64,000 nt of DNA, from positions 326,277-390,276 of the forward strand of contig VWND01000028.1 in assembly GCA_009599575.1 (NCBI GenBank). Reading direction: 5' to 3'. The DNA is from Blumeriella jaapii (Eukaryota > Ascomycota > Leotiomycetes > Helotiales > Drepanopezizaceae). How positions within the stretch are numbered: position 1 is the stretch's first letter; every line of letters begins with the position of its first letter. The translations under genes and the position numbers were made by a program. The notes beneath the pieces are model-generated. The model was not told the origin of the DNA, searched no databases, and saw only the letters and a list, made by a program, of their open reading frames with translations. Below, piece after piece: positions 6,990 to 43,969 of the stretch.

Positions 6990-7023
6990 ATTCGCGGTGT
7001 TATTTCGATTGATAACGCGAATG
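6990..7023. repeat. 34-bp repeat with ATTCGCG/CGCGAAT ends, copy 4 of 4
   Basis: It lies between the protease-like and RT segments of gypsy B and keeps both ends (ATTCGCGGTG and AACGCGAATG). Confidence 0.55.
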
Positions 7024-9598: not shown

Positions 9599-9599
9599 A

Positions 9600-11584: not shown

Positions 11585-11589
11585 TTACT

Positions 11590-15850: not shown

Positions 15851-16479
15851 ATAAATTAATTTCTAAAAAAGATTCTTTTTTTTCGCGAGGTTTATTCGAT
15901 GCTTTATAAGATAATAAGAAGCTAGGATAATCGCGGCGATATCGTCGAATACGTCGGCGTAATCGTCGTATTTAGAGGATAATTAATATTGTTTTTTAAT
16001 AGTTTTTTTTAAAACGATACAAAACGCTTGCTTTTTTTTGGATTTTTTTTTGAAACGTTTGATTATAACGAAATTAAGCTATAAGCGTTCGATTGGATAT
16101 CGCTACGATTTAGCTCGAAAGCTTATAGCAGGGTCGATATTTCGCAATCAAAGGAATTTTAAAATAAGTAAAACCCTTGGGATATTTATATCGTAAGCTA
16201 CGAAATCGCTTTGTATTTTTTTAATTGTTTTATAATTATCAATAGCGCGAATAAGTTGCGTATGCGTGCCGTAAATGATTACTTTTTTTTTTTTAATCGT
16301 AAATAAGTTAATACGTTTTTAAGTTGGTTTTTATTTATATTTAATTAATAACTTTTAGATTACGCAGTTTTTTTTCGCGCCGCAGTCGATAAAAGCTCGT
16401 TTCGTACGAATTTCGCTTTTAGCTTTTTTAATTTCGACTGAAATTATTATTTTCTGCTTTTTTTTTTCGCTCGATTTTG

Positions 16480-17650: not shown

Positions 17651-18116
17651 GTTTCTTCGAGTTTTTTAATTGTTTCGTAAATTTTTTTCTTAATTTTTTT
17701 TTGTTTTATTTTAGCTCGTATTTTTTTTATTTTTTTACGTTTATTATTTTCTTTTTGTTCGACGCGGGTTCGTTTATTAGCTAAATAAATCAGAGTTTCG
17801 GTGAAGGGTTTTTTCGAATCGCTTTAAGCGTAGTCTTTTTTAATAATTTTTTTGATAAAAGAAGTTAGAGAATCGTCGCGCTTTGGTGGTGGAGTATTTT
17901 CGACCTTTGGTGAAGCTGGTAACGTTAGGAGAAACGATAGTACGGAGTTTTTTTAAACAGCCGAAAGTGCTGAGTCTTTTTAAATAGCTGGAAATGCTTG
18001 TTTTCTGCGAATGCGAAAAGTTATAATATCGATAATAACGATATAAGTGTAATAATATAATAGGAAATTGTTTTAGTAATATCGAACTGCCGTTCCGGTA
18101 AATAAAAAAATCAAAA

Positions 18117-18529
18117 TGTAAAAATTAAAAGGCAGGGAAATATTAGTTTAGATAATAGAGCTTAGATAAAGTTGGGTTGATAGTCAAACTGATTTTTATC
18201 TTTTATATTTTTAATAAAAGGCGTGTATAAGTATAAAAGGAGGGATGGAGCCTTCGAAAAAAGTATTTCCCAGGAAACCAGACGAGCTTCATTTAATATG
18301 CTTTTCCAGCTTTTATTCCGACCTTTTTTCATCTTTTTTAATATAACCCTAATAACTGGTTCCTTAGCAATTATTTTCATAAAGTGTTTTACTTAAATAT
18401 CATTTCCAGCCTTTACAGTACTATCCGGCCCCTACGGCCTATCCGCAGAGAATATTATTCGAGGGTTGGTAGGAGGCAGAGGGTCTTGGCGGATCACCTG
18501 ACTTATACACGTGATGTTGGTTCCTGACA
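18117..18529 (-). repeat. 5' LTR of gypsy A2 (413 bp)
   Basis: This is the least mutated of the three LTRs: it starts TGTAAAAATT and ends CCTGACA. Its inner side joins the leader that is duplicated at 1-703. Confidence 0.92.
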
Positions 18530-18534
18530 GCTTA
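18530..18534. repeat. Target-site duplication GCTTA (right)
   Basis: It matches 11,167-11,171 and immediately follows the LTR end. Confidence 0.93.
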
Positions 18535-20942: not shown

Positions 20943-20967
20943 TTTTTTTTTTTTTTTTTTTTTTTTT
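20943..20967. repeat. Poly-T run (25 bases)
   Basis: An uninterrupted T tract within the 3' part of the LINE; it is unstable sequence and a possible sequencing-length artefact. Confidence 0.8.
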
Positions 20968-21310
20968 CGGCCTATTAGCCATACCATTATACGTTTTCAC
21001 GCAACCGATAAATCATACTTTGATCGGTGCCGTATACATATTTTTTTTAAGCTTTTTTTTAAGCTTTACGCCCATATTTTTCATTAACGAACCATCGTAA
21101 AAAGCGGCGAAAAGCGTAGTCGACAGCAGCTTTAGCTGTACTAACACGAACTGCTTTCGGGATCGTACTTTGTATTTAATTCCTTAGCTTAGCACGTCTC
21201 CGTACCCTCTGGAAGATCCTAGAAGGGCAGCCTCTCGGCTGCACTCCGCTAGACGTTAATCAATACTACTACTACTACTATTCAATAGCAGAGTTAAACA
21301 CTTAACACAC

Positions 21311-21556
21311 GATTCCCGAAGAAACTTCGGCCTACCAAAGCAGAACTAGCCAAAGCCAAAGCTTCGAACAAGGAACGCCCTAAAACCTCTTCTGACAACG
21401 AACTTACATCTGTATCAACCACACCACCAAAGGAACCGAAAGCAGTTGCACCATCTAAAAAGTTGATAACAACCGCTCCATCAAAACCTACAATTCTGTT
21501 CCGAAGCTTGGAATACCTACTCCTGCCTTCGAACCTAAAACTCGATTACAAATACG
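21311..21556 (+). pseudogene. Possible 3' end of a gene cut by the LINE
   Basis: The plus-strand frame from about 21,311 is open for 82 codons to a TAG ending at 21,562. It includes KLRPTKAELAKAKASNKERP, TTPPKEPKAVAPSKKL and TILFRSLEYLLLPSNLKL. Its composition is like ordinary coding sequence (Lys/Pro/Ser-rich) and unlike the RIP block. There is no start codon; the LINE ends about 25 bases upstream. It may be the tail of a gene interrupted or truncated by the LINE, but chance cannot be excluded. Confidence 0.3.
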
Positions 21557-21928
21557 ACTAGTGTAAAGGGATGAAGCCTACACTTTGGTCAGGTAGAAGC
21601 TCATGTTTGGTCACGTGATATGAACTCACACTGTTATCGTCTGACTGATTATAGTGTCACGTGAAAGCACACTTACATTGTATTCTAGAACTCGCGACCT
21701 CCCAACCTAGAACCTCGTAGTCGATGCAAGCCTTCTACTAACCTCCTGCTCCCTGACATGTTGACTACCAGGTTCTAAGTTGGAAGGTCGCAAATTCTAC
21801 GATAAAGTGTGTGCGTTCTATCACGTGACTCCTCAATCCCATAATAAAAGCTTGGATCTTTATCACGTGACAATATATTACCTTCAACCTGACCAAAATG
21901 TGGGCTCCATCCCCTTACAACTAGCTAG
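21556..21928. repeat. 373-bp foldback palindrome with TCACGTGA sites
   Basis: The left arm (21,556-21,726) and right arm (21,757-21,928) are inverted copies with roughly 70-75% identity by eye, around a 30-base loop. Four TCACGTGA octamers sit at mirror positions: 21,611 pairs with 21,863, and 21,657 with 21,821. Paired starts and ends sum to about 43,481-43,485, giving one centre near 21,742. The arm ends read GACTAGTGTAAAGG on the left and the complement of CCCCTTACAACTAGC on the right. This could be a foldback or MITE-type element. I see no coding capacity. Confidence 0.8.
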
Positions 21929-22019
21929 AAAACAAAAGCAATCTCGCTTTGTGGAATTAGATTCTGACGATGAAGAGATCCATGGCATCGACTAAAGAGG
22001 AAGGACTATTTGTGAGATA

Positions 22020-24727: not shown

Positions 24728-25495
24728 ATGACTGAACCAATACACTCCGCGGCACACGTGAAATACTTAAGGGAGGAGGTTCTTAAGCTTCGGCGTGAGA
24801 ACGGCGAACTGGCAACCGAGAACAAAATGATGAAGAACAGGCTTGTCAGCCAGGAGCCCCTCGTCAAGACCGCCGTCGCCATCCGTCGCCGCTTCTTTGA
24901 GCACGCAAAGAATCACCGAGGGTTCGAGAAGCCTAATGAAGCTATCATCGAGGCTGGATACCACGCTGGGAACCGAGGAGATTTGCGCGCGGATCTGGCG
25001 CTCTTCGATCTAGGCCACATGGACTACATGGGGTTTCCTCCATTGGACTCGGTTCCACCGATCGATCCAGTGTACAATGAGCTCTTCCTCGATCTGTACA
25101 CGGTCCCGTACAGCGAGTACTTCCATGCCTCCATCGCCCCATGGAACATATCCCACACGGAGGAGAGGTTCCTGAACCTGTGTGCCACGATGAACAGCCA
25201 CTCTCTCTTCGATGCAAACGAAGCCTCCCCTGGTAGCGACGATTTCAAGCTGTTCAAGAGCATGGCAGTTGGATATGTGAAGAGAACGGCGCGGTTCGGC
25301 GAGAAGCATAAGGATACCTATGCGACGGATGAGATGGCTGGGAAGGCGGCTAGGAACAAGGATATCGATGAGTGTCCACAGCTGGCTGCATATCTTGAAG
25401 TTATGAGTGAGATCGTCGAGAGGACGGTTGAGCAGGGAAAAGCAGCACGCACTCGGCAGAAGGGAGGGCAAGCCAAAGCTGCCAAGAGGGGTTAG
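24728..25495 (+). CDS. Coiled-coil protein with the shared C-terminal domain (family member 1)
   Basis: A single-exon gene of 255 residues. ATG at 24,728 is the first in frame (context AAAAATGAC); the frame upstream has only a TTG. Residues 10-40 form a leucine/charge heptad helix (YLREEVLKLRRENGELATEN). The rest carries the domain shared with the genes at 30,140, 33,375 and 41,951: an IR-R helix (VKTAVAIRRRFF, about 48-57), GYHAGNRGDLRADLALF at 77-93, and YNELFLDLYTVP at 116-127. The basic C-terminus is KGGQAKAAKRG. No known family is recognised, and neither a signal peptide nor a membrane segment is seen. A (CAA)n leader lies about 120 bases upstream. Its closest relation is to its own cluster, and a scaffold or interaction role is inference only. 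Confidence 0.72.
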   Translation: MTEPIHSAAHVKYLREEVLKLRRENGELATENKMMKNRLVSQEPLVKTAVAIRRRFFEHAKNHRGFEKPNEAIIEAGYHAGNRGDLRADLALFDLGHMDYMGFPPLDSVPPIDPVYNELFLDLYTVPYSEYFHASIAPWNISHTEERFLNLCATMNSHSLFDANEASPGSDDFKLFKSMAVGYVKRTARFGEKHKDTYATDEMAGKAARNKDIDECPQLAAYLEVMSEIVERTVEQGKAARTRQKGGQAKAAKRG

Positions 25496-26927
25496 GGATC
25501 TGGACGCTAAGATCTCGGAACTGTGTTACTGTCACTCTGAATTGGTGGATATTTCGTTCTGATGGGTACTCTGCTAGCACGTCTGCTCTCGAAGATCGAT
25601 CACGGGACGCTTGGAAGATTTTTCGCAGCAGGGAGCCAAGAAGTGGAAATTGAAACCGTGCAGGCTTTGCGGGTGTTTGGGGATATCCAGAGCCTAGGAA
25701 CATCGATGAGTTACACTGCTGCTTAGTTTCAGTTTAATGCGTTTCTAGGGAAGCAGGATAGCACAAACCAGTCAGAACCAGTTCTAGCACACGCATCCAT
25801 GCATTTCTTTCAACCAATCTGTTGCTTGCAACTCTGTCTTCTTATTACCTTTGGATGCGAACGCAGCACAACATTTGATAGTGCGCTATCATGAAGCATG
25901 GAATGGTTTTATGATTTATTGATTAAAATGATGGTAATGTCAATTCAGCACTGGGGCCACCGCGATATTTCTTTAGTCAGCATTGCTTTGTCAACGGGTA
26001 TACTTCAGTTACGAAGCCCCTTTGATACAGCAGTTAAAAGGTAAGTATCAAGAAAAGTGTAGCTCTGTGGCCAATCTGTACACTTTCAAACCGATCCCAA
26101 CAATGTATTGAGAGTGTTCCAGTCCTACCTACAGGAAAACCATGGAACACAGCCTCCAGTAAGAATTTACCTGTGCAAGTTTTAATAGTCACGCAGAGTG
26201 TGACGTAGGCAGTAATGCTTATGGAGTTGCATTTGACCAGATCATGCAGCACTGAATCATTATCTCTAGTTGTACGGTGGTAGGATCCCAAAACAGAAGC
26301 GCATTTGTATTTGAAAGGGACGCATCGAAGCTGTGGCTAAGGAGTACAATAGGCATATCAAGGTTTTGAAGCTTGCACCCGTTGCTAGAAACTTTGTGTA
26401 AGCGTAGCTTAGATATTGTGGCAGGGGACCTGGGACTATCGGGGATGATGATACCAGGCTTCTGAAATTTGGGGGGGATGATGAACAAGACAGTGCGACA
26501 GTCTAAATTTCATAGATAATCGAGGTGTGTTGAATCGACAGCTGGGTATCGTGAAACGTAGAGACGTTCGGCCGCTCATTGTGTGCCGATGACTTGTTAC
26601 CGAAGCGGTGACATACATAAGGCGGCAGGCTATCTTTCACCACACATGGATAGCATAAGTGCTCCGAATGACAGTATCGAGAGGCAGGGCCTTGAGGTCG
26701 CGAGATTCGGGATATTCTGTTCGCCGTATGCTGGTTGGAAAGATGCTCCATTTCTGAATGCTTCCTGCCCTGACAACGTAGTTGCCCATGGCCGCGCCAG
26801 TACCCCTAACCGACAAGCTAGTCTGCTTCTCCGTGATTCAGTTTTTGGGAGTTGCAAGCAATCAGGCAGAGATGTCCAACCTCGAGGTCCGCACCAGTGT
26901 TCCCATCATACAACCCAGGAAAGTCGT
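25496..26927. other. Intergenic, nothing supported
   Basis: This 1.4-kb interval holds the 3' side of the 24,728 gene and the 3' side of FAF1, which converge here. Short open stretches on both strands lack start context, splice sites or recognisable motifs. Confidence 0.5.
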
Positions 26928-27849
26928 TCAGCGACCGCGTTTTCCCTTGCCCCTTCCACTACCCCGCCTGCCGCTTCGATCACCTCTAGCACTAGGCATT
27001 GTCCTTGGGCCTTCGATCTCATAGATGTCCTTCTTGCTCAGAGTCAAAGTGCCCCCAGAAAATTTCCCTACACCAGGCGCGCCAATTCCTCTATCTCTTT
27101 TTCCAGTGCTAGTCTTCTTAGTGGCCATCTTGGCTTTCTCCAGAATGATGCCGTTCTCTTTGGCTTCGTGCCTTCTCTTTTCTTCCTTCTTGCCTGCCTT
27201 GGTGATCATTCCCTTGCGGTGTGACATGGGCATCTTCTTCTGCTTCAATATCGAGGTCTTGGATCCGAGAGTCTGCAGTCGCAAATCAGTGGCTTTATGC
27301 CTGTTGTTTCCACTGAGAATCGGGTTTGAGGATGATTCTAGCAGGTGGGATTCGGTGAGGAGTCGCTGAAGGGCAAGGTCTTTCTTGAGATTGGCAGCTT
27401 CGGAATCGTCATCGTCGACTATCTTACTACCTACTCGGTCTTGATTGGTGCATGTGCTAGGTGTGATTTTGGGAATTTTAGAACTCTGTTTAGATTAGCA
27501 AACGGCTACGAAAATTGTAAAAGCGATTTACCATGAAAATTTTGAGCTCCTCCTTGGACATTGCTGCCATTCTTGCCTGCGCATCCTCGTGCTCCACTAC
27601 CTGGACGCCATCCTCTTCTCCATCTGATAAGCCACCCCAGTCTGATTCCGTCTCTGGTACTTGGTCCGAACTCTCCTCTACCACGGTCGCATTCTGGACC
27701 TTGGGAAGAGGCTTGAATTGCGCCTCGAAATGACGCCTGAAAATTTCCTGTGCATCTAGCTCCTCTCCTAGAGATTCTTCACTCTGTTCCCTTGATGGTC
27801 CGATATCCTTAGTGGCGTGTCGCTTGCGTTTTCCGAGCCTTGTAGACAT
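26928..27849 (-). CDS. FAF1: Faf1-like small-subunit processome assembly factor
   Basis: Two exons on the minus strand (27,849-27,532 and 27,485-26,928) around a 46-bp intron (GTAAAT…TAAACAG) give 291 residues. The first ATG in frame reads MSTRLGKRKRHATKD; a longer frame upstream begins with TTG and was not used. The N-terminal half is acidic with a predicted helix. The C-terminal half has the family hallmark: SHRKGMITKAGKKEEKRR, EAKENGIILEK, then IGAPGVGKFSGGTLTLSK, and a basic tail. Yeast Faf1 and human C1orf131 (FSAF1) of this family act in nucleolar maturation of 18S rRNA and the 40S subunit. It is divergent from HIS6, with 216 bp between the start codons. Confidence 0.85.
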
Positions 27850-28065
27850 TTCCAGTGTTTCTGATATCTTTGACGACTTCAATGGATCCAAAAAACATCA
27901 AGTGTCGTTGAGAAAAAAACGCCAAGCTACCCTAGATCCGGGGTTTAACCGACGCTAACCCCAGCCTTACCCCTCGACGTTACCCCTCCACGTTGCCTCT
28001 TGACCTCACCCCTCGATCAACCCCACCATTTTGTCGAGTTAACGCGCGACAACATTTCTTCAAAC

Positions 28066-28940
28066 ATGACCAGATTCCGACCCTGCATAGATTTGCACTC
28101 AGGGCAGGTCAAACAGATTGTGGGAGGAACACTGACTACTTCCTCCGAGGATTTGAAGACCAACTACGTATCAAAGCTTCCGGCTGGGCATTTTGCACAG
28201 CTCTACAAAGACCATCATTTGGAAGGAGCACACGTTATCATGCTAGGTCCAGGAAACGAAGATGCAGCTAAGGAAGCACTTGCAACCTGGAAAGGTGGTC
28301 TGCAGGTTGGAGGAGGAATAACTGATAGAAATGCTGCGCAGTGGATCGGATGGGGTGCAGACAAGGTTCGTTGCAAACGCTGAACAAGGTTCATTGACTC
28401 AACTCTTCAGGTCATCATTACTTCCTTTCTCTTTCCCGAAGGACAGTTCTCTCAGCAACGCCTCGAGTCTGTACTTGCAGCTCTTGGTGGTGACAAGGAG
28501 AAGCTAGTGATTGACCTGAGCTGTCGTAAGAAAGACGATACCTGGTTCGTTGCCATGAACAAGTGGCAAACCATTACTGATATGGAAGTCAACAAAGGTC
28601 AGTATTATGTATTCAGCCATTGGTATCATCTCACTAATTCTCTAAAGCATCCATCCAGTCTCTTGAAGCTTACTGCTCTGAATTTCTCATCCACGCTGCC
28701 GACAACGAGGGCCTTCAAAAAGGCGTCGACGAAGATCTCGTCAAAAACTTGGCAGAGTGGTGCAGTATACCAGTCACCTATGCTGGGGGTGGAAGAAATC
28801 TCCAGGATCTGGATCACGTGAAGACTTTGAGTGGCACGAGAGTTGATCTCACTATCGGAAGTGCCCTCGATATCTTTGGTGGATCTGGAGTGACATTCAA
28901 CGAATGTGTGGAATGGAATCGTCAACAGCCAAAACGCTGA
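28066..28940 (+). CDS. HIS6: ProFAR isomerase (HisA/His6), histidine biosynthesis
   Basis: Three exons (28,066-28,365; 28,411-28,597; 28,648-28,940) encode 259 residues, close to the 261 of yeast His6. The enzyme converts the aminoaldose ProFAR to the aminoketose PRFAR by an Amadori rearrangement, the fourth step of histidine synthesis. Seen in sequence: [20 protein letters not shown] with the first catalytic Asp (D9), LQVGGGI of the first phosphate-binding loop, the strand [16 protein letters not shown], and the second phosphate site TYAGGG plus [12 protein letters not shown]. The first intron starts GTTCGT, an uncommon donor; the frame and the His6 similarity ([11 protein letters not shown]) require it. 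FAF1 is transcribed away from the same short promoter. Confidence 0.93.
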
Positions 28941-30139
28941 CTTTCAGTACGAAAATCTCAAGGATCCAGCGAGTTTCGCCTGCTCAATCCGTGATACTGA
29001 GAACGGAGACCTCCCAAAACCTCAGGCGAGGTTTCCAACTCCGACTTCTCTTATTCCAAACCACAATTTTCCTTCCTCAAATTCGCCAAATATCCTCAGA
29101 TAGGTGGCTCAGCATGGGCATGCGTGTTAATCACAACGTTTCTCGGCATCTGTCTTTTTCATATTCATTGTCTGCCGTTGGTCAAGAACAACAAAAGTTT
29201 GATTGGAGCCGAGAGAGCAGCCGATCACCATGGTGACGATTGCTAATACTCTTCTGTACCGCTCTGACTAACAGAGGCCAAGAGCTGATTTCCTAACATG
29301 TATAGGCTACTACTGCTTTGGCCTGTGGAACATCTCTATACCACCAAGCCATTGTCGAATTGCACGCGGGTGCGAAACGCTGAACGACTTTTATCTCAAG
29401 TTAACTCAACTTTCTTGGCCTCGTACTTCTTTCTGAAAGAATGCCAACATGACCGAGTCAGTGACAACTCAATGGATTCTCGGAGACAGAAACAAGTGCG
29501 ACAGAAAGAAGCATGCGTGATAGGAATGATACTGGCATATCTTGAAGCAAGAGGCAGGCGACAACAAAACTTCTGATCCGTAAGTCTCCTTGTAAGCAAG
29601 ATACTGAGAAGCCGTACTAACAAGAGAAACGCACAGATGCCACCCAAGAGAGAGCATTGCATCTCTAATCACCAGAGATGATCTTGATGCCTAGCCTTGT
29701 CTATTTAAAGTTTATTCGATCGCTCTTGACTTCTGCTGGACGAGCCTGCCAGAAAGTGTAGGGTTTGCAGGATAGCATAAACATCGTTGTGACTTCTGGA
29801 CACTGGCCAGAATGTAACTCACCTCGACGTCCTTATGACTAAGCGGAAATTGCCGCTAGTGTTTGGATTTTGCCGAAAGCCGACGCCACAACTTTTCTGG
29901 GCCCAGTGCGGAAACAACACCATCCATAGGGATCTCGAGATCAGCAGGCTCCTTTGGTTACCTGACAAGCTTTCGGTGAGTTTTGTCTCTTCCAGCAATC
30001 CACCTGAACGCTCTTTTTATCTGCTCCTACTCCTTCCTATTTGAAGCAAGTCAGCGACGGGGCAACATCCCTTTTCGCGCTTCGCGTGCTGAACGATACC
30101 CTTCTATAGTGCAAAAACACAACCCTGAGGTTAAAGTAC
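28941..30139. other. Intergenic, nothing supported
   Basis: Short open stretches on both strands have no shared motif, no splice-linked partners and no start context. It holds the HIS6 3' side and the presumed promoter of the gene at 30,140. Confidence 0.5.
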
Positions 30140-31332
30140 ATGATGTCTCCATTCCAAGAGATAGACAGTCTCAAAGTAAGTCGAGGAGCTTCAATTGGAG
30201 GTTTTGATGCTTACCGCTCTAGGACGAGAATGCCCGCCTGAAGGGAATCGTGACCAGACTAGAGCGCAGAGATGCAGATCGAGGTGGCAATCTCGCCCAG
30301 TACGTTCACATGATCTGCCGCGCCACTACTGTCAACATCTAGCTAATCTCTTGGGTCTTGCAGATCGGGAGTTGAGAGTAGGGCCTTGCGCCTAACTGTC
30401 CGAAACAAGGAAATCCAAATCTCCGCACTACACACTGCAGTTGAGACGAAGGATCAACTGATCAGCTCACAAGCAGAGGAGATCGAGAAACTCCGCAGAG
30501 CTGCCAATGTCGCCCATCATCAAGATCCAGTCGAACATGTCAGCATCGTCCAACGATTGGAGGCTGATCTTGCTGTTTTGGCGCAGAAGGTGAGGGATAA
30601 TGATGTGGAGTTTGAGGGTTTACGAGTTATGATGATGCCATGGTAAGCAAATAACCTATATCACTGAATGTCTAGGCTACCTCGTGGCTTCACTTATGAT
30701 GTCTAATATGCTTCAAATAGTTATCAAGTCGGCTATTGGATTCGGCAACGCAATAGTCAGAACGGAAATACATCATGGTTCGCTCAAGGCATTACCTGGT
30801 ACGTTACGTGGACACCGCCTCTCCCCCACAATTCCGATTGGGGAACTGAATCCAATTCATCTTCTGGAAGGGTGCTGGGCACGATTGCTAACGTACGACC
30901 AGTGATTGCACAACCCATGGCGCAGACCCCCTCGCCGACGCCAGCATTCTTCACTACGACGTCAATCTCCAACTTGTCAACTCCTCCGGTACTGACCAGT
31001 GGGCCCACTATGAGCAAAGTTACGGGGTTCCTCCCGATATCGTCTTGAATAAGCCTTATTTTCGCCGCTTCCTGGACCTCATCGCTTTCTATCGCAACAT
31101 GGAATGCTATGGCCAAGAAGGCTCTACGCCACCAGCCCAGGTAGCAGCATTCATGGACGAGACCAAGAAGCTTGTTGAGAAAGTTTATCCGTTGGGAATC
31201 TTCAAGTGCGACGAGGATATTGAGAAGGATGAGTCTAGCATTGCGATGTACAATCGCCTAGCTTTGGAGTTTCACAATGCCCGCACTAGACATCGTACCT
31301 TCCCACGCAAGATGGCCACTGGGGAGCAATGA
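30140..31332 (+). CDS. Coiled-coil protein with the shared C-terminal domain (family member 2)
   Basis: Five exons (30,140-30,175; 30,223-30,299; 30,364-30,642; 30,721-30,798; 30,903-31,332) join to 299 residues. Every intron has GT-AG ends; the last has the branch site TGCTAACG. Residues 5-110 are heptad-like coiled coil (IDSLKDENARLKGIVTRLER and KDQLISSQAEEIEKLRR). The shared domain follows: PCYQVGYWIRQRNSQ at 130-144, THGADPLADASIL at 161-173 and HYEQSYGVPPDIV at 192-204. The C-terminal third is helical without known motifs. No single ORF shows this gene; it appears only after splicing. Function is unknown. The same domain order as the genes at 24,728, 33,375 and 41,951 marks it as a paralogue. 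Confidence 0.72.
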
Positions 31333-33374
31333 AGGAACTGACGGAGAAGAGTTTTGCAGGTAGCTACGCGGTCATGTTATTTCGACGTGGGCGCTCGAGC
31401 TGCAGATGAATCATAGGCTTAGAATTGCAGAGAAAAACTTCAAGAGGCCATCGAAGGGAATTGCGGTTCTTTTAGAGGATAATGCAACCCCATGGGCTTT
31501 CAACCAGTAAGATCTGCTTGAATTTATGACAGTGAAATTGTGAAAGGGAATCATTTTCTCCGGCCAACTGATTAACATGAGGCGAAAGGCCAGATCTGGT
31601 TGAGGCCTCTGCAATTTTCCCAAAAGCCTTTCCTTGGGAATTATTTGCGCACAACAGTAAAATCTAATGTTCCGAAAATCGGACTGGCTGCTTTGCAAGT
31701 ATTATATGTACCAGTCAAACGGCAAGTGAGCGACTCTACAAAATCAGCACTCAACATGAGCAAGATCTGATAGAGGCTTGCAGCAGCCCGAGAAAGCCCC
31801 TTCCGCTCGATATATCCGAGAAATCCATGGTCCATGATTCGGGTTTCGTTCCTCGCTCCCAGATGTGGTTGCGAATTGTGCAGCATCGCGGTGAACTACA
31901 TCAACAAGAGTGTTTGATAGGTTAGGTTTGAGCTTTCATCCCTTTTCTATATCCTTTTGCTGTTCGCGGTGCCTGGAATTGTGTGAGGTTATGACTGATG
32001 AAGTCCTTCCCAGATGCCTCAATTGTTCTGTCTGCAGGACGGACACTTGCCACGAAAGAATGATTGCGCAACTAGAAAAAAGCCGGCTGGAGATTATGGC
32101 GAAGCTACTATTGGGACACTGGAAAATGGATCATGGATCCATTTTCGTATGATAAGTCAGTATTAACGGATCCACTAGGACGCTGAAGAGTTTAAAGCTA
32201 AAGAAGGAAGGTTCAACTACAGAAACTGCTTGAGGAGGGAAAATCAGCGTGTCAACTGAGAACCATTCTGGTAGATACTTGTTGCCTAGACTCTTGTGTG
32301 AATAATCAAAGATCGTAGACCGTATCTTAGGTGACTAACACAGTTCGCCGAGTGCCTTGCGACGGTCAACTGGTACTTCGGCAGTACCAGACTTCAGCAG
32401 GGCTTAAATCACTCTGTTCAGAGGAAGAAAACACAAGTCTGCGGCGACCTGGAGAATTTCCTAGTTTTTTTGAGGGGTGGAGGACGCTGGTGGTAGATAC
32501 CAGAGGACGGTCACGAATAATCAGGGCTGCCAGTTCCCACATTCATGATGCCGAGTCCAAGTTTCTGGGGGAGCGTATGACGACTAGTAGCAAGCTGATT
32601 GCATCTGACAGCTGCTAGAATTAAAATATTCCTTAGCTTCTCAGCGTGACACGTAGAAGACTATGAGTCCTACAGGCATGAATGAAGTTTTCCTGAGATT
32701 GTGCCAGCTACTTTTTTTCCCGACACAATTAACTTCAGGCGATTTACTTCACCTGCCGAACTGTAAGTATATCGTGAAGTTCAGTGTACTGCGTAGCTGA
32801 CAGAGATTATGATATAACTAGGCCAATCCGTTTGGAAAGTCCAGAGTTTATGCGCTTGATGAAGTCATCTCGAGGCCATCCCTGCAGAGACTCTCCTAGG
32901 AGATGACAATACGGGCATGCCGTCCTCACTCATATCGTCCGAGATCATCTCTACTTGAAGCCCTAAACATATACTCACCCCATCGTTGTCTAATGGCGCC
33001 ATTAAGGCTTTCTTTCAGGTCTTCGCGCTTTTGGTAGGTTCCATGTTTTTCCAATTCTCGCTTCTGCGGCCTAGCGCCCCCCACAATTCTCTCCCCGTCC
33101 AACGCTCCCACCTTCTTCCTTTCCTCTCCTCCTTCACACCTCGCCACAAATCTGAACATTGACCCAAATCGATGCTCCATTTTGTACCAAACTTTAACAA
33201 CATCAAAAAACACACCACAATCAAACAGCAAGTGTCGAGTAGGTCTCCTCGCTTCACGCCCCTCCTCCCATCTCTCGCTTCGCGCGCGCGTTGCTTCCTT
33301 GCGCGCTATCTCTATGCATCCTTGCGCTCTCCCTGTCTCCGATCTCGAATCCTCGCTGACAACTCGCAGCTAAA
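31333..33374. other. Intergenic, nothing supported
   Basis: This 2-kb interval contains the promoter of the large gene at 33,375. The pyrimidine-rich stretch 33,240-33,370 is probably its 5' leader. The minus-strand open stretch 32,926-33,231 looks like an antisense shadow of this leader. Confidence 0.5.
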
Positions 33375-36300
33375 ATGTTTACACCTACCGACCCCGCCGG
33401 CGGCGGCCCTGTGCCTATTGGCCAGGGTGCGTCTGTCCTCTCTACCACTCCTCCAACCCACATCAAGATCGAGAACGCTATCGAAGCATCCGTTGAGATG
33501 AGGACTCCCGAGGTTGTGCAAAAATCTGAGGCTGACCACGAGACTTCCGCCGAGCTCAATTCTGCCGTCGAATCTCGCAAGCCTATGTCCTTGAATAAAG
33601 TCATGAAGATTTGGAGAACACAGATCAAGACTGGGAAGGTTATCCAATTGGACAGTGTAACTGTGAAGAATCCTGAAAAGCAAATCGAGAGTCGCAAATT
33701 TGAGATTCTTGTAGTTGACCGTCTGAACGAATTCGATAAGTACGTACAAGTCATGGTTTCCCCTCCTCATTCGAATCTTTCCGCAATTGAGAGCACTACT
33801 AAAAGCCTTGCAGATTGTCGGCTGAGTCCAAGGCTCAGGCTGCTCTTGCTGCCCAGGCTGAACAAGAGTCCGCATCAATCGCTCTTGCCTCGGAGACTTG
33901 TGATCAGAAAGCTAAAGAAACATCTGACACCTTCTGGGCAAAGAGTGCTGAGGTCAGAGAGCTTGAGTGTTCTTACGCATCCATGGAATCTACTATGTCA
34001 ATTTCTGAGAAGAGACAGCTTCTCAAGAGATTAATCGAAACGGGTATCGAGATGGCAAACCTAAGAGTTCAAATGCTTGCTACTGAGAGAGAAACCCTTG
34101 AGGCTGAGATCGCTCTCGAGGAACAGAGATCCGCCCAGGAAGCTTCTGCCAAGAAAGCTGCTGCAAACAAAGCCCGGCAAATTCGCCAGCTTGCTGACGA
34201 AGCAGAATCTCGCCGCCTCAACTTCCACAACGATTTCCAAGACTGGTTTGCGAAGGCTAAATCTGCCTCTGGGTCATCTTCAACTTCGGATTCGAGCTCT
34301 GTTAGCGGTCGCTCAAACCACTCCGCTGCTTCCGAGGAGCATAAGGAAGAGTAAGTACTTCCACATTTATAATTATTCCCCGTCACTTTCTCAACATACT
34401 TGCTGACACTCGCTGTAGACTTATGGATGCCCTAGAGCAAATTGAGACTCTCACATGTACCAACAATCTCCTCAAGGCTGCCGCTCTGGCAGATGCAGAC
34501 AAGATTGCTTCCCTGCAAGCTCTTGAGATCGCGCTCAGTTCGAGTGCCAAGATTTCTTTTGCCCGTGTCCAAACTCTTGACCAGAGAATCTCCAGCTTGT
34601 CTTCGGCTGCCACGATTGATGCCAAGAGAATTACTGCTCTCGAAGAGGAGAAGGCGTCCGAGCTGGCTCGTGTCGAATCTCTTAGCAACGAAGTCGGTGT
34701 CTTGAACATGACAATCCAGGCTGCCGCTCAAAAGATCATATTCCTTCAAGCTGCTGAAACTTCTCTAAAGGAGGAGAATGCCAAGCTTTTGGGTCGTGTA
34801 AATGAGGAGGTCGGTATCTTGAAGATGTTGAAGTCGAGCGCCCAATCTGCTGATGAGAAAGTTGAATCTCTCGAGGCTCCAGAAAGTGCTTGGAAGGATG
34901 AGCGCTCCATGCTTCTTTTCCGCGTTGAGGTTGCTGAGAATGCTAGCAAGGAGATCGAGGCTTTGAAGCTGAGCTCACAGGCTGCTGCCCAAGAGATTGC
35001 TTTACTTAAGGACTCTGAGGCTGCTCTGAAGGAAGAGCGCTCCATGCTTCTTTTCCGTGTTGAGGTTGCTGAGAATGCCAGCAAGGAGATCGAGGCTTTG
35101 AAGCTGAGCTCACAGGCTGCTGCCCAAGAGGTTTCTTTGCTCAAGTCTTCTGAGGCTGCTTTTAAGGGCGAGTTTGCAGAGACTCTTGCTCGCACTCAGG
35201 TTCTGGAGAAGGAAAACGAGTTACTCAGATCTTCCGACAATGATTCCGCCTCGATTGATTGTGTCACTCATTCGGAGACATCAGATAATTGCACCAAGGC
35301 TTTTGAAAACATGACTGTCCCTGCTAGTAAGTCGATGCACCAATATCCTCATCGGATGCTATGCAGGACTTCCAAAAACAAGCTTAGAATGCGCGTTGCT
35401 GACTTTGATATTCTCTAGCCACAGAAAAGATATCTGAGTTGAAGATAGCGCAAGTTAACACGCTTAAGGCGAATTTGAAGGTCGAGACACAGATGTTGGA
35501 TTTCGTTGATGATGTTTCCTTCAAGTTTGTTGCTAGTAAGTCGTTCCAGAACGAGTCCCTTGTTGACTGGTTCGGACTGTCCCTGAGTATTTTTATGAAA
35601 TTACTGACTTTTTGTCTTGCAGCTACACCGGAGAATCGTACCATGGCTGTCACTCCAGCAAAGAGTGCTGATGACCTGCGCCATTTGCCACCACACCTAC
35701 GGTATACAAAGATGGCCAATCCCCAGCGTCACCTACCACCACACCTCCGTCACGGACCATTATATCAGCAGTCCCTCGTTGACGGTCCGAAGGCTCAGGT
35801 AGAGTCGCGCAGCATCGTACTCGCGGCTACCGAAATCGCTCCTCCACTCCAGTCTGTGATTACTCCCATCAAGGACAGTTGTAACACTGATGTCACTGTT
35901 ATCAATGGTGTTGCAACCCCAACCGCCGCTCAATTTGAGGCTCTGAAGAAGCATGTTGCCTATATCCAGCCACTCTTTGAAGTTGGTAGAAACGTCCGTA
36001 TTCGCCACAATATCTTTCAGCTGCGCCACCTCAAGGGTAGAGATTTTCAAGTCAACAAGCACCCCTTTTGCGAGGGTTACGAGGCCATCAACGGTGGAAG
36101 CGCTTTTGCTGATGCTACCTTGTACTTGAACGACGGAAAGTGCAAGAACGATTCTCGAAATTTTGAGGCTATCTACGGCCTTCCTGCTACTGTTGTCTGG
36201 GAGTACCGTGATTTCAGTACACTGGTCCACATTCTCAACATGGGTGTTGACATGAACGTGTACGGCAACACTGGCCCCTACAATTCCAACAACTCAAACT

Positions 36301-36638
36301 TCGCTGCCAACTACCAAAAGGTAACCAGCCGTATCATAGCAAATGGCTCGAAGAAGTTAGCCATTGGTTCCGATATTGAATTCAAGAAGTACCCTGATCT
36401 TGTCATGGCGTACAGAGACATGGTAAGTCGCTCCTCTCCTCTCCCAGAGCTCTACGGAGGTGGATAGTGACTGACAATTGCGTGTGTCCAGGTCTTCGAG
36501 CACAACAATGCCCTCAGGGCTCGACAAGAGCACAATGGCGAGAATAAGTTGTACGAAGCAGCCAGGGCTCTTCGCGAGGCTAGTTCTGACGTCCCCGCTA
36601 CGCTTAAGTCCGCTTGCCCTGCTCGGGTCGGTAAGTAG
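33375..36638 (+). CDS. Large coiled-coil protein with internal repeats and the shared domain (family member 3)
   Basis: Six exons (33,375-33,739; 33,814-34,350; 34,419-35,326; 35,419-35,535; 35,623-36,422; 36,492-36,638) give 957 residues. The N-terminus is proline/glycine-rich. A long helical region fills about residues 110-640, with a serine-rich break near 280. Inside it a 45-residue unit (ERSMLLFRVEVAENASKEIE…) occurs twice in tandem (34,900-35,034 and 35,035-35,169), nearly identical at DNA level. RHLPPHLR occurs at 662-669 and 678-685. The shared domain lies at 759-830: PLFEVGRNVRIR, GYEAINGGSAFADATLY and FEAIYGLP. Exons 3 and 4 end with the same bases around the donor (GCTAGTAAGTCG), hinting at exon duplication. 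The stop overlaps a GTAAGT string, so a further 3' exon is possible. Function is unknown. Confidence 0.75.
34900..35169 (+). repeat. Tandem duplication of a 135-bp coding unit
   Basis: Two units of 135 bp start with GAGCGCTCCATGCTTCTTTT and differ at only a few positions, mostly toward the end of the unit. In protein this is 45 residues, close to six heptads plus three, and extends the coiled coil. The high identity points to a recent duplication or ongoing unequal exchange. Confidence 0.9.
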
Positions 36639-39148
36639 ATGTTGACACACGCAAAGTATATGCTAAATTCACTTTGCGTTTCGTCATGTTCTCGTTTGAG
36701 AATATCGAGATGCGGCATATATTGGACTGCAGCTTGTGCGCGAAATTTCATCTTTTCTTGCCTTATTAGAAGGCTGTTTACATCCTTCGTGTGGGATGGA
36801 GAAAACACGAGAAAGTTCGTTCTGTTGCCTTGGGGGTTCTTCAATTTGTGTTGCGGGCGGCATCTAAACCAAACATTGGCTTGTGTTTTGTTCATTTCGG
36901 GAGCTTCTCAATCTGTCTTGCGCGTTGATGCATGTCACAGGATGAGTTTTATGCTCTCATTTCGGAAAATTTTAAGTCTGTCCAATGGGGTAGATGTAGA
37001 TTAAAATTAGCCCGATTTCTCTTCAGTTGGGAAACTTGTTTAATTTCTCTGGGGGGGATATGGTCACAAATTTGGGTGGTGTTGTGCGCTTGAAGATAGT
37101 TGAATTTGCGAGCGGGATGAATTTCATTTGGGGGATTGTTCAATGTCTTGCGAGGTGGACACAGGTCACACAATGGTCCCTCTTGCTCTCGTCTTGGAGA
37201 GCTCTGAATTGTGGGCGGGATGGATACTACACCACAAATTGCATGTTGAGTTTGCATGTTGGGTGTTTTTGGCTTGATCACCAGCTCTGCTAACGGATGT
37301 AAATAGTGACTGTAATAAAAAAAAATTCACTCTGTTCTGCTGTGACCCGTGATAACTTATGAAACCTCCATTTCCTATACAATTGTTCAGAATGATCTAG
37401 TTTTGATTCAGACTACACATTTCTAAAACTATCACGCTTAAAACTGTAAGGCGCTTACTTTAGCATTTAGCGTTACGAATGAATATTCAACAAAGAGGTT
37501 CGGACTTTGGAGCGTATGTCATATCAAGATGATCTGACACTCAGAAAAGAAAAGCTGTCTTGGGATGTCCGTCTTTGAAGACTTGCCAAAAACACGGTAG
37601 GGGACAACACGAGCATTGATACAGGAGTAGTCATAGATGGGTTCAATGAGTTTGCACAAGAAAGGACACAGTCTATTAGGCAGGGAGTCAAATCATGTCA
37701 GTTCATAGTCATCTGCTTGTGCCACACACTTCAAACTTCCAAAACACAATTGAGAATGGTCATATTTGAATCGTTTCTTTACGTGGAAAGATTTCGTTGA
37801 CCTTTGCTTCGAAGTAATTTGTGCAGCTGCAGTACGTAACGGACCATAATCGGCCATTCAAATTCTTCATTCTGTAGCTGGTCCTGATGTTTGGAAAAGA
37901 CAGGAGCTCGCTTAACGGCGCTCTAAACCGATTCTGGTGAAGCGTCCTTGGCAATATTCAGCTAGCTTGCCAAGGTACAATATGACTCCACGTGTAGTAC
38001 AGTACCACTACCTCGATTTATTGTCAACACTCACTTCTATCTGACTATGTTGACTATGTTGACAACGACCTCAAAAATCATCTTCCGTGTTCAGCAAATG
38101 CCTTCCTACATTCTCTACGCACCTTGCGGCGCGATCGTAACGAGGATGCTTGGTAGGAATGGACGTCTATGTTTTGATCCTCAGCTGGCAGAATTTTTCT
38201 CCTTTCTTACGCGCTTTGTGTAGCCAAAATCTGACAGCTAGCATCAGTTCTATTGGTTTTCTATTCCCAGCTTCAGGGATCACAACGCGCCGCGTACTTT
38301 ACCCAAGCCAATCGAGCTTCCAAATTTCCCGAGATGGATTTGGAGCTGAAAGGCATGCTCCGTGGTTGCATGAGATAATGCTATTTTTAGTTTCGTGGTC
38401 TTGGACGCGGGACAACACAACGCGCTTTCAGGCACAAGTGGCTTGACGCGTGATACCTGGCGAGACCAGGCTCTACGTTCCTCCTGCCTTGTGTATATTC
38501 TACCTCCTGGGAGGTGCGGCGGCTTTCATGGATCCATAAGCATGGTCTTTTGAAAACTTGAGCCTTTAAAATGCTAGGCTAGTGTTATAGACTGTTGCTG
38601 CTGCACCAAGATACACATTTAAACTGTCACATCGCCACTTTTTGCCTTACATACAATCAGCACGGCTACCAGAAAAGGGTCGGTAGATCTCAATGTGGCG
38701 TGGAATTCCTACAGGCGTTGGTGGCTTAAGACAACGACTTTTGAAGAAACACTAATGGCTGCTGATATCAGTAAGTGGAAACAATCTGGCGGCCAACCTG
38801 CGCGCAGATTGGCATCGCCCTTTATGTGGCGTTCTCATCCTCACTCGGTGCAGATGTGCAAATTGTTTGAGGCTGAAGATGTGGATACAGCCATGCGGTG
38901 TTTTTCAGGTGTGATAACCAATGATTCGACTCGTTCCCAATTTGATCCTGTACTGAGCTCAGCCCTGTGGTTTGGGGACTGTCTCAATTGAGCGATTACT
39001 TCTTTACGTATGGGTTACACTGGGGGCTCGGACTACGAAGTGCTCCTATAAGTGTTCCAGTATCCCTCATGTGAACTGCTGGGGTTTCTCCGCTCCTTTT
39101 AGCTCGGCACTGATACGTTTTTGACATTGGATAAGGGAATTTGACAAG
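36639..39148. other. Intergenic, nothing supported
   Basis: This is 2.5 kb without a supported gene. The open stretch at 38,695-38,991 begins with GTG and has no motif. The stretches at 36,639-37,293 are unlinked by splice sites and look like chance frames. Confidence 0.5.
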
Positions 39149-41468
39149 ATGGAGCATCAAGTATGCCTGACTGCGTATATATGTTGGTGAGGGAAACTAA
39201 CCTCTATAGACTCACATTCAACAAGCCGCTCTCTCTGCCGTCGATATCAGTCAGCACTATAACGGAGGCACTGGCTGGTTTAAAGGATTTCATTATCGCA
39301 ACCCGACCTTACGCGATGTCGAAAAAGATGGGCCTCTTGAGCCAGTTCCACAACACTTTCATCGAGATGTCTTGAAACGAGAAACCTATCGGCCTCGAGA
39401 CCTGGCTCGTTATATCAGTCCTACCTTTGGTAAACCGTACCGCATGTTGGTTCAAGCTGCCGATGGACCAAATACGCAACCGTCAGGAGAATGGCGTCGT
39501 CGTTCAGTCGGTGGAAACGCACCCACTCTTTTGAGAATAGCTACTTGGGCTATTCGATGGAACAACGACGGCGTTGAAGATGTTGCCTTGGCTATTGGGA
39601 AGTCAATTCTATCTATACCGGCGATCTTCTTCCTCGTTTCGTGGCCACTTAGCAACGGCCCAGGTGCGTCAAGATCGCAATATCTTGGCTTTCCCTACCG
39701 CTGCTACGAGTATCCCAAGCACGCACTTAACTCGCTTGATTCGGCACCCACTGCTTCGACAAAGGTCAAAGGTCAGAAGAAAGGTGATGATGATACAGAG
39801 TACGAGATTCATGGGGAGCAGAAACGGCTGGTTCGACCTCGTGCCTTGGTTGTTTACAGGGAAGGTGGATGGCACGTTGTCGATGACGGCAGCTATACGG
39901 GCTTGTATCTCTTCGTCAGCTATGCGGCAGCTCAGTATCAAGTCCCTGATCTAGCATCGCCAGACTCAGCTGCGACCACCTTGGATTCCCAGTCCCTCGA
40001 CTTTCGTGCTCGTCGACTTTGCGAACAATTTGGTGTTGAGGCCTACTGGTGTGACTACCATTGTCGTGCTTCCATACAACCCCATATAACGGATGACGTG
40101 CACCGGTTCTGTGATGTAGTGCGAGGGGCACACCAAATTTGCATTCTTCTACCAGATGCGTCGCCAAGTTCACTTATTTTCTTTGGCCAGCGACTTTGGT
40201 GCCTGCCCGAGGTTCTCTTGTCTCGCAATCACAAGGTCGTCCTCTGTACGCCTGGACCCCAGAAACTCCAGAACGCCGATTCAACTGAATCTGTCGACAT
40301 AATGGAAATGGTCCATCGCGGGTGGGCTTATCGAACGCTTCCTGACCAGCGATTTGAGCACGATCCCACCGTTGAAGAAACGTTTCGTCTCCTTGCTGAG
40401 CACTACACTGGGACTCTGGCACTGTCCCGTCTTGAGCTCATCCAAGTCGCACTAACTGCACTCAGATCTCGACAGTGGAGGGAGTTCCAACGCGGAGATA
40501 TTGCCTACGCTCTGATGACCCTCTTGGCCAAGCGACCTCGAATGGACCCTTCTGACACAGAATTGCAAGCGCTGGCTCGTCTCTCACTCGCAAATGATAG
40601 CGATCGCATTGTCGAGCGCATGATTTGTATGGACCAGCTCAGACTCCCAGGCCATGTCGGCTGGTTCAATACCTCTGACGACCTAGGAGCAAGTTTGTGG
40701 GACATCGAGCCTCTTTGTCAAGTTGCCGGTGTCTGTTATGACGGATCATTGATCGTGGACGGCTGCCACGGTATCAGCATTCGGTGGAAAGACATCCCAC
40801 GTATCGCGTTTCGGGTCCGGGACACATGGAAGAAGCTCTGGGCATTCACCGCTGTGCGCACTGCCCCTCTGTGGGTTGCTATAGGCGCCGGAATTTGTGC
40901 GGTCCCTTCTTTGCGTGGACTTGGTGCTTTTCTCTTGGTGATCGGCTTTCTGTTACTACTCATAGCTCCGTGGTGTATCTCTGTGATATATGGTGGTAAA
41001 GTATGGGGGGCTACACCGTGGCTTGTAGGCTTCGAGGGAACACTGTCTCTTGAAGAGATCGAGCATATGACGTTTGGAAACTCTATCGGACGCTTCACTT
41101 ATACTCCGAGCAGTGGACCCTACTGCTCAAGAATGTCCGACGAGAGAATTGGTGACGATCCATCCAGCAACTTCGGGAAATTAGCTAAAGGCCATAGGCT
41201 CTTTACACTGGTTGACACAGTAAGTTGTATGCTTGACTCTTTCCTTCGATTGGTGCTGACTTGATAGGGGACGATGACCGTCACGGTCTTCGCCGCCGCC
41301 AGGCCACCTTCAGTTGCATTGTTGTGCGGGAAAGAAGGTGGCATGCTCAGAGCCGTCCTCTGTTCCTACGAGAGATCCACAAACTCGCTTCAAAAAGAGT
41401 GTGTCCTGAGAATGGAAACCCCGATGTGGGACCAAAGTGTGCTTATGGGCTGGACGAAGCTCTCTTGA
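39149..41468 (+). CDS. Membrane protein with a TIR/HET-like domain (fungal family, function unknown)
   Basis: Three exons (39,149-39,160; 39,210-41,219; 41,268-41,468) give 740 residues. The tiny first exon (MEHQ) is joined by a 49-bp intron with branch AACTAAC, which supplies the missing ATG; the long frame itself has only TTG. A central segment (about 227-315) has LYLFVSYAAAQY, a strand with EAYWCDYHC, VVRGAHQICILLP and RLWCLPEVLL. This layout recalls TIR/HET-type domains in large fungal protein families, where such domains take part in non-self recognition. A hydrophobic stretch (about 560-605, GAFLLVIGFLLLLIAPWC) predicts one or two membrane spans. Some relatives are mis-named dehydrogenases. 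The gene is well supported; the function is inferred from fold-like patterns only. Confidence 0.7.
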
Positions 41469-41950
41469 CAGGTTGCTTTTGGATTGCGGCCTAAGTCGCG
41501 TGTTCCATGTTTGGTTTTCGTTACAAATCTTGACTAAGATGGCATTTATGGACGCCGAAATTTTGAATTATTGGAGTTTTCCGGCACTCTTACGGGCAAC
41601 TACTACCTGTTCGTTTGTCAATTCGTCACACTAAACTTCTAGCTTTTTTAATGACAACTGTGACGCAAAGCCTTCTTTCCTGATAAGGGTTTCGCTGAGT
41701 CCTAAATGATATGCTTAACAGATTCGATCATATGTTCTCTTGAATGGCGGACCAAAGATTGGGGTACTCAGCCGAATACTAGGCTGCCTTTGTTGACAAG
41801 TTTCTCGTTGTTTACTACGCCAAGCACTTTCGCGTACAATCTCCCCTCGTTGACGTCCACCCCATCGCGCCTTCGCATTTGCATGCACCCATCGCACGCG
41901 GGCAACTCGTAGGATGCACTTTCCACGCTGAAGTTGAGAAGTTGAGCAAC
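41469..41950. promoter_or_regulatory. Intergenic, likely promoter of the gene at 41,951
   Basis: No coding signal. The C/T-rich stretch around 41,780-41,930 may be the 5' leader of the following gene. Confidence 0.4.
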
Positions 41951-43969
41951 ATGGGGGGAAAGAAGAAAACCGCTGTAAAAAAGGGGGGTGCCAAGGCCAC
42001 GACCCCTCGGAGACAGACAGCTACCGAAGCTGTAGAAGAGAGACAGAACAACCTCATCGCAGCAGAAGGTATGGAAAACGAGGCCAGAGACCTCATGGCC
42101 GCTAACGAATTACAGAGAATGCGATCAGGCCCCCGTCCGGGGTCAGGAAATTCCATGTCTTGTCTTGCTTCGTCACAAAACACGATGACGATTGTAGCCA
42201 AAGGCGACGGAGACGATAGGAGTGCAGACGAGATGATGCCCGGCTTTTCAAACCTATCTATGAATCCCAGGATTGTTACCAGCGGCTCGCCCGAATCAGG
42301 TACGGTTACATGAGGCCGGCAATTTACATCTGGCTAAATGGGAGATTATGTCCTCTAGGAAGGAAGAATTTGGCCTGAAAACTTTGGGGGTTTCAAGATC
42401 TGACGATCATCCAGAGTGTTCTACCCGTTTTCGACAAACGCTGCTGGAGCGATTGCTTGTACATTGTTCCAAACGGTCGTGGGAGCTTCATGGGCTGAGA
42501 ATAGACCGAAATAAAATCGAAAAAGAACGAGTCAAAATGGCATCTGAACTCAGCAAACTCCAAGATGGCCACACAGCGACATGTTCCGAGCTTGCCGAGA
42601 CCAAAGAAGAGCTACGATTCACAGCAGAATCCCTGAGACATGCCCAACAGGAGTTCCAAGCTTTAAGGGTCGAGCACTCTCAACTAAATCAAAAGGTAGA
42701 CCGGCTTATCAGTGATGCCACCAATACCAGTGTCAACACAAAAACCCTGGAGAGGAAGCTTCGCAAAGAGCAGAGGAGACTCGCCAGACTCCAAGGTGCC
42801 TACGAAGAGCTCAATGTCCAGATCTCGCATATCACGGGCGAAACTACAGCCGCACATACTCTAGCAACTACGAAACCCGGGTCTCGTCTTGGTCTGACAT
42901 CTGCCACGAAAGATACGATCGCTAGCCTTCGAAACCTGAGGCAAAAGTATGACGACGTGGTAGAAGACTATGAGGACTCACAGAGCCGCCTTGAAGCACT
43001 TGAAAAGTTACAACAGCATCTGGAAGGCAGAAGACACACGGCTGAGAAGAAGCTAGTGGTAGTCGAGGCCGAATCCAAAAGAAAATCTCAGGATATCGAG
43101 ATGCTGCGGAAGGCCAAGGCAGACATGGAGAAGACGCGGGATCTCGTTGCGCCAATTTTGAAGATCGGAGTTGACATCAGATTGCGAAATCTTCAATGGA
43201 CCCGCCTGAAAGTATTCCATATACCACCCGGAAGCATCGGTAAAGCCATCACTCTCAATGGCAATGCCGCGGCTCACTGTGCGAACGGTGCGGTGGATGC
43301 GGCTATGTTCGTGGCTGGGCTTGTGCCGGAAAACTTTGTAGAAGAGGCAAGAGAGACATTTGAAAAGATGTACTCGATGACCCCACTACTGTATGGGTCT
43401 TCCTCTCCCAAAGCCTTGCGATTGATCGATTGTCAAGCTACGGTGATGACCGCGAAGGGCCATTTTCGGAAGAAAACACCATTTTGTGGGAAACTGTTAG
43501 CCCTACACAAGGAGTATCTCAAGCTCGAAAATTGGGTCTTGAGGAGGTCAGGAAGAGGATCTTCTAACGGGTTTAAGGAGGACGACAAGTTGGAAGAAAT
43601 TCTGAATCAGATGAAGGATTTATCAGAAGGTATTGCTGATACTGCGAGAAACAAACGAGTTACTTATTCAAAGAAATTCCGCCCATTTGTAAGTCTTGTT
43701 TCATGCTGTGCGGACACGCATCTTCTAATACGTAGCAGAACTATGTAGACAGCGAAGGTGGAAATGACTTATCGGAAGACGAAGACCCGGAAAGCACGAG
43801 TACGGACAGAGAGAATGAGAGTGAGGATGATGAGAGTGAGGATGATGAGAGTGACGAGGATGAGAGTGACGAGGATGAGAGTGACGAGGATGAGAGTGAC
43901 GAGGATGAGAGCGAGGAGGATGAGAGTGACGAAGATAGTGACGGATCCACGGATGAGGATACACATTAA
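41951..43969 (+). CDS. Coiled-coil protein with the shared domain and an acidic tail (family member 4)
   Basis: Three exons (41,951-42,299; 42,415-43,688; 43,739-43,969) give 617 residues. The acceptor of intron 1 (ATCCAG at 42,414) was chosen because it keeps frame; the nearer CTCTAG does not. The N-terminus is basic (MGGKKKTAVKKGGAKATTPR), possibly a nuclear signal. Residues about 130-360 are coiled coil. The shared domain follows: PILKIGVDIRLRNLQ from 363, GNAAAHCANGAVDAAMF at 399-415 and FEKMYSMTP at 432-440. The last exon encodes an acidic tail made of ESDED repeats. A basic head, coil and acid tail would suit a chromatin or scaffold protein, but this is inference. Paralogous to the genes at 24,728, 30,140 and 33,375. 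Confidence 0.75.
43815..43936 (+). repeat. 15-bp tandem repeat coding for acidic ESDED units
   Basis: About eight units of GAGAGTGACGAGGAT and close variants lie in the last exon of the gene at 41,951. The repeat is a whole number of codons, so length changes would keep the frame. Confidence 0.9.

What the first reader, a model, noticed from the sequence alone, without database searches (positions are those of the whole stretch)
24728..43969. Four clustered paralogues with a coiled coil plus an unrecognised shared C-terminal domain
Genes at 24,728, 30,140, 33,375 and 41,951 are all on the plus strand and very different in length (255, 299, 957, 617 aa), but share one domain order. (1) An N-terminal coiled coil. 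(2) An IR-x-R helix: PLVKTAVAIRRRFF, PCYQVGYWIRQR, PLFEVGRNVRIR, PILKIGVDIRLR. (3) A glycine/histidine loop leading to A-D: GYHAGNRGDLRADLALF, THGADPLADASIL, GYEAINGGSAFADATLY, HCANGAVDAAMF. (4) A helix ending before a Pro or Thr-Pro: LFLDLYTVP, HYEQSYGVP, FEAIYGLP, FEKMYSMTP. Two of the four become visible only after splicing. I know no family name for it. Divergence with retained key positions suggests old local duplications under selection.
Basis: partly seen in the sequence, partly recalled or inferred. Interest (0 to 1): 0.88.

Follow-up and report, generated by a model that had tools for sequence, protein, structure and literature searches.

The report
Diverged fungal coiled-coil paralogues, shared helical domain
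A fungal chromosome carries at least four, probably five, very diverged neighbouring genes that join a coiled-coil rod to the same unnamed tail domain; the kinship looks real but is too faint for ordinary searches, and the function is unknown.

Summary
BLASTP on 3 of 6 pairs shows nothing in the domain, but leave-one-out profiles rank each held-out tail first (4 of 4; E 0.25, 0.096, 0.0013, 0.02) and 0-6 of 2000 shuffles reach it (12 runs). The profile led to a probable fifth copy outside the window (contig C28, 299.1-300.0 kb, minus strand), perhaps broken, across a 46-kb AT-rich, RIP-like block. No significant family match for the tail, no PDB sequence match, only the window's own proteins in two database searches; controls for fungal content failed. 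Structure models are unusable (pLDDT 40-42). Most likely: old, fast-diverging coiled-coil scaffold proteins whose kept tail docks an unknown partner. Homology well supported, function inferred: an unnamed domain, not a new kind of system.

The parts
24728..25495 (+). Gene D1, single exon, 255 aa: short coiled coil (about residues 8-40), domain, basic tail
   Evidence: ORF; heptad score; leave-one-out
30140..31332 (+). Gene D2, 299 aa; exons 30140-30175, 30223-30299, 30364-30642, 30721-30798, 30903-31332
   Evidence: Splice sites and translation; branch-site motifs in 3 of 4 introns
33375..36638 (+). Gene D3, 957 aa; exons 33375-33739, 33814-34350, 34419-35326, 35419-35535, 35623-36422, 36492-36638; long Ala/Ser/Glu-rich rod, Pro-rich linker, domain
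41951..43969 (+). Gene D4, 617 aa; exons 41951-42299, 42415-43688, 43739-43969; Lys-rich N terminus, strong coiled coil, domain, acidic Ser/Glu/Asp tail
   Evidence: coil matches ERM_helical and SMC coil models below their cut-offs
24785..25492 (+). Segment of D1 used for the shared domain (with the end of the coil)
30721..31332 (+). Shared domain of D2 (last two exons)
35925..36638 (+). Shared domain of D3, split by the intron 36423-36491; its last helix is complete only after splicing
43101..43688 (+). Segment of D4 used for the shared domain (with the end of the coil)
1..22000 (.). AT-rich block (GC 0.25-0.37, composite RIP index positive in each 2-kb bin); continues leftwards on C28 to about 302 kb; separates D1-D4 from the probable fifth copy

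Best explanation
The four genes (and a probable, possibly broken fifth outside the window) are old, highly diverged paralogues of one fungal family. Each protein is a coiled-coil rod followed by a shared, probably all-helical tail with a P-[LIC]-x2-[VIT]-[GA]-x2-[IVA]-R helix, a Gly-rich loop leading to A-D (V-D in D4), an [FY]-x-x-x-Y-x-[VLM]-(T)P helix and, by alignment in D2 and D3 and by eye in D1 and D4, a last helix carrying A-R-x-[RK] (D1, D2, D4) or L-R-A-R (D3). Proposed working: the coil makes dimers or larger assemblies; the kept tail, with its conserved arginines, docks a conserved, probably acidic or phosphate-bearing partner (protein or nucleic acid). Rod length and the extra basic or acidic ends vary freely, so the paralogues act as scaffolds of different reach for a similar partner, probably inside the cell and possibly in the nucleus. 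Shown: gene structure, homology of the tails, domain order. Inferred: helical fold, oligomerisation, partner, location.
For: Gene models and branch sites. Leave-one-out homology. The D1-D4 profile gave, as its best hit outside the four (E 2.4), a fragment that proved to have a coil and the P-L-x-x-I-G-x-x-A-R helix just upstream: that upstream piece is reached by 3 of 2000 shuffles in each of two alignment modes, the middle piece by 1 and 0. Same 10-residue spacing of the first motif in five copies; as a pattern, written after all five were seen, it matches 7 times in 509,304 six-frame residues, 4 of them family members, shuffled mean 1.8; D2 is split by an intron. Both AlphaFold2 models are all-helical with a long last helix, but at pLDDT 40-42. 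Home-made heptad score favours coils in D1, D2, D4 and the fifth copy.
Against: Four of six pairwise comparisons are within chance, and two of four leave-one-out E-values exceed 0.05. The placing of the last helix differs between alignments, and leave-one-out matches of D1 and D4 do not reach it. The C-terminal piece of the fifth copy is not significant (270 and 163 of 2000 shuffles), it lacks the A-R-x-[RK] end, and a collinear chain over its pieces does not stand out (7.7 bits against 9.8 for an unrelated chain). D3's coil is weak. No function, localisation, expression or structure evidence exists; domain pI ranges from 5.5 to 9.8, which does not favour a uniformly anion-binding surface.
Confidence: 0.4

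Rival explanations
1. The resemblance is coil-adjacent chance: four unrelated coiled-coil proteins whose helical tails share short motifs picked out by eye.
For: BLASTP finds nothing in the domain (3 of 6 pairs run); 4 of 6 Smith-Waterman pairs are within chance; two leave-one-out E-values are above 0.05; the regions were selected by a reader looking for likeness.
Confidence: 0.07
2. Compatible with the best explanation: these are ordinary species members of an already annotated but unnamed fungal family of hypothetical proteins (from memory, similar coil plus 'GNxAAHxG..ADAxL' tails occur in filamentous ascomycetes).
For: Recall only; the D4 and D1 motifs resemble that recalled pattern.
Against: No relative in two protein searches, but that database may hold few fungi and both control searches failed or timed out.
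Confidence: 0.6
3. HEPN-like (DUF4145-type) RNA-binding or nuclease domain, suggested by a G-N-x-A-A-H motif in D4.
For: GNAAAH in D4 resembles a motif recalled from DUF4145.
Against: No DUF4145 or other HEPN match in Pfam at E up to 1 (of D2's tail only 31045-31329 was scanned there); the His is Asn in D1 and D3; no R-x4-6-H at that place in D1-D4 (by eye, alignment).
Confidence: 0.05
4. Accessory genes beside an AT-rich repeat block, being lost or silenced: paralogues diverge there because of local mutation rather than functional diversification.
For: AT-rich, RIP-like block between the fifth copy and D1-D4; the fifth copy has stops between its pieces.
Against: D1-D4 show normal GC (0.48-0.55) and open spliced frames, and their bins no RIP signature; a His_biosynth gene and a proteasomal AAA ATPase lie among or beside them.
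Confidence: 0.3

Closest known systems
Long coiled-coil rods (ERM_helical PF20492; SMC TIGR02168)
   Same: The D4 coil scores E 6.8e-6 and 8.5e-9
   Different: Both below their curated cut-offs and coil only; the tail domain has no significant match
DUF4145 / HEPN domains (recalled)
   Same: GNxAAH-like loop in D4
   Different: No Pfam match; His not conserved; R-x4-6-H absent by eye
Uncharacterised ascomycete hypothetical proteins with a coil plus 'AAHGG..ADA' tail (recalled, no accession)
   Same: Domain order and motif order as remembered
   Different: Could not be fetched or compared with these tools

Membership tests
The proposed coil-plus-helical-tail family | Tail detectable by a profile made of the other members | tested here: met
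   Ranked first 4 of 4, E 0.25 to 0.0013; 0-6 of 2000 shuffles
The proposed coil-plus-helical-tail family | Coiled coil N-terminal to the tail | tested here: met
   Home-made heptad score reached by 3 (D1), 2 (D2), 0 (D4), 2 (fifth copy) of 200 shuffles; D3 weaker, 13 of 200
The proposed coil-plus-helical-tail family | Common last helix ending in A-R-x-[RK] | tested here: inconclusive
   Aligned, not; D2-D3 local alignment reaches it; absent in the fifth copy
The proposed coil-plus-helical-tail family | Common three-dimensional fold | tested here: inconclusive
   Both models all-helical but pLDDT 40-42
HEPN / DUF4145 | Significant Pfam match | tested here: not met
HEPN / DUF4145 | R-x4-6-H motif | tested here: not met
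   Alignment A2, by eye
SMC / ERM proteins | Match above curated cut-off | tested here: not met
   Coil-only, sub-threshold matches

The most novel reading that the evidence does not exclude
An undescribed fungal protein domain used by a fast-diverging set of scaffold proteins grouped on both sides of a RIP-affected island, where rod length and tails are swapped while one docking domain is kept - for example a nuclear or self-recognition scaffold system.
Probability: 0.2. Interest if true: 0.65.

Novelty: new variant of a known kind. Interest (0 to 1): 0.38.

Why it matters
If the domain is as unnamed as it looks, naming it would put a family label on a set of fungal 'hypothetical proteins' that pairwise searches cannot connect, and give a starting model for finding what the conserved tail binds. 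The case also shows that splicing-aware reading can recover a family that exon-by-exon searches miss: each of four own-genome protein searches with a member returned only that member.

Tried and rejected
BLASTP on 3 of 6 pairs: nothing significant in the domain. Own-genome protein searches with D1, D3, D4 and D2's last exon returned only the query; the first look is too strict to find even D2 from D3, so these say nothing on copy number. Own-genome DNA patterns for the loop and the F-E-x-x-Y helix: forward plus reverse 5, 10, 8, 9 matches against 4, 7, 9, 3 reversed-pattern controls; the profile found nothing better than E 9.7 in the five loci (whose last lines then stopped with a file error); one match is D4; the nine others were read by eye and none is a member; two matches are D3 and the fifth copy; two others were read and score E 22 and 32; four were not read; nine matches with near-identical letters, judged a repeat by eye, none fetched. 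Families: nothing significant for the domain in Pfam (D2 and D3 scanned in pieces), NCBIfam or PHROGs; no PDB sequence match at E up to 10. Protein database: D1 alone and the four-row alignment found only the window's own proteins. Viral-contig scans with D3 and D1 and a prokaryote-genome scan with D4, which find close relatives only: none. Structure: D1 alone and D4 with a four-row alignment, pLDDT 40.4 and 42.4; no fold search was run on such models. HEPN idea rejected. Collinear chaining test for the fifth copy: not decisive.

All six paper searches failed or timed out, so nothing is claimed about the literature.

Full report
WHAT IS THERE. The window is the last 64 kb of contig C28 (390,276 bases) of a 47.4-Mb, 91-contig assembly. 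Short introns with fungal-type branch sites, a histidine-biosynthesis (HIS6-type, name recalled) gene and a proteasomal AAA ATPase (Rpt2-like, name recalled) nearby point to a fungus; the species is not known to me. Four plus-strand genes were rebuilt from the DNA. D1 is one ORF (24728-25495). D2 has five exons (299 aa), D3 six (957 aa), D4 three (617 aa). Of 11 introns, 9 carry a CTRAY motif starting 14-21 nt before the intron end (7 of 9, 2 of 2).

THE SHARED TAIL. All quoted motifs are present. D1 and D4 have a similar helix by eye: the ends read KAARTRQ (D1), NARTRHR (D2), ALRARQE (D3), TARNKRV (D4) (tails printed). Alignment brings these together, that does not, and the leave-one-out matches of D1 and D4 stop before it (model positions 10-61 and 12-84). 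So a tail of some 160-200 aa is supported for D2 and D3 and only suggested for D1 and D4. In D3 this last helix is cut by an intron and complete only after splicing.

IS IT MORE THAN CHANCE? Pairwise scores are poor: D2-D3 z 6.2, D1-D3 z 2.8, the other four pairs z 0.1-1.8, and BLASTP on three of six pairs gave nothing in the domain. Profiles do better. With each tail held out, a profile of the other three ranked it first among the six-frame fragments (25 aa or more) of the non-window genome fetched by then, 4 of 4, with E 0.25, 0.096, 0.0013 and 0.02. Against 2000 shuffles of the held-out tail, in three alignment modes each, 0-6 shuffles reached the real score. The regions were chosen because they looked alike and I set the edges, so these figures are somewhat flattering.

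A FIFTH COPY. In the four leave-one-out searches one 63-aa fragment from about 27 kb left of the window was the first (twice), second and third background hit; with the four-member profile it was the best hit outside the four, E 2.4. Read in place (C28 about 299,071-300,000, minus strand), it is preceded by a coil and by a P-L-x-x-I-G-x-x-A-R helix, and followed by a helical piece. Tested piece by piece with the D1-D4 profile in two alignment modes, the upstream piece is reached by 3 and 3 of 2000 shuffles, the middle piece by 1 and 0, the C-terminal piece by 270 and 163, so the last is not significant. A chaining score does not single the locus out. I call it probable. Stop codons lie between its pieces; it may be spliced in a way I cannot see, or broken.

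SURROUNDINGS. Between the fifth copy and D1 lies an AT-rich block, C28 about 302-348 kb (window 1 to about 22,000), GC mostly 0.25-0.37, composite RIP index above zero in nearly all 2-kb bins, at most 0.65; the bin at C28 310001 is -0.05 and the bin at 314001, with GC 0.43, is 0.01. The fifth copy lies about 2 kb left of it and points left; D1 starts about 2.7 kb right of it and points right. The bins holding D1-D4 have normal GC and a negative index. Of 326 kb scanned by profile (window, the five 3-kb loci and C28 from 80,001 on), no further member was recognised; the rest of the 47 Mb was not readable here.

WHAT IT IS NOT. No significant match for the domain in Pfam, NCBIfam, PHROGs or PDB sequences. 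Two searches of 5.8 billion proteins found only the window's own proteins. I could not show that this database holds fungal relatives of anything: both control searches failed or timed out. Absence there is therefore weak evidence. Scans of viral contigs (D1, D3) and prokaryote genomes (D4), which reach close relatives only, gave nothing. From memory only, filamentous ascomycetes carry hypothetical proteins with a similar coil and tail; if so, this is a known but unnamed family.

HOW IT MAY WORK. The coil should make dimers or larger assemblies; the tail, the part kept across four very different rods, should be the docking part. Conserved arginines in the first and, where present, last helix suggest an acidic or phosphate-bearing partner; D4's Lys-rich start and acidic end and D1's basic end would fit a nuclear protein. 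None of this was tested, and domain pI varies from 5.5 to 9.8.

VERDICT. Observation confirmed and extended; interpretation as diverged paralogues supported, 'local duplication' only in part, 'under selection' untested.

Noticed in passing
C28 about 302-348 kb; window 1-22000: AT-rich block of about 46 kb with a RIP-like dinucleotide signature, probably degraded repeats.
   Followed up: partly
L012 9071..10000, minus strand (C28 about 299.1-300.0 kb): Probable fifth family member, perhaps a pseudogene; its 5' end probably lies in the next fetched stretch, L011.
   Followed up: partly
34893-35167: Two-copy, 135-bp, 91% matching tandem repeat inside the rod of D3: in-frame lengthening of the rod by duplication.
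   Followed up: no
43811-43936: 15-bp repeat, 8.4 copies, coding the acidic Asp/Glu/Ser tail of D4; its length may vary between strains.
   Followed up: no
35680-35760: The D3 linker holds two copies of H-L-P-P-H-L-R, which resembles the YIPPHLR motif recalled from DDX3/Ded1 helicases; the paper search for it failed.
   Followed up: no
39372-41264: Single 630-aa ORF between D3 and D4 without any Pfam match; by eye a protein with membrane helices.
   Followed up: no
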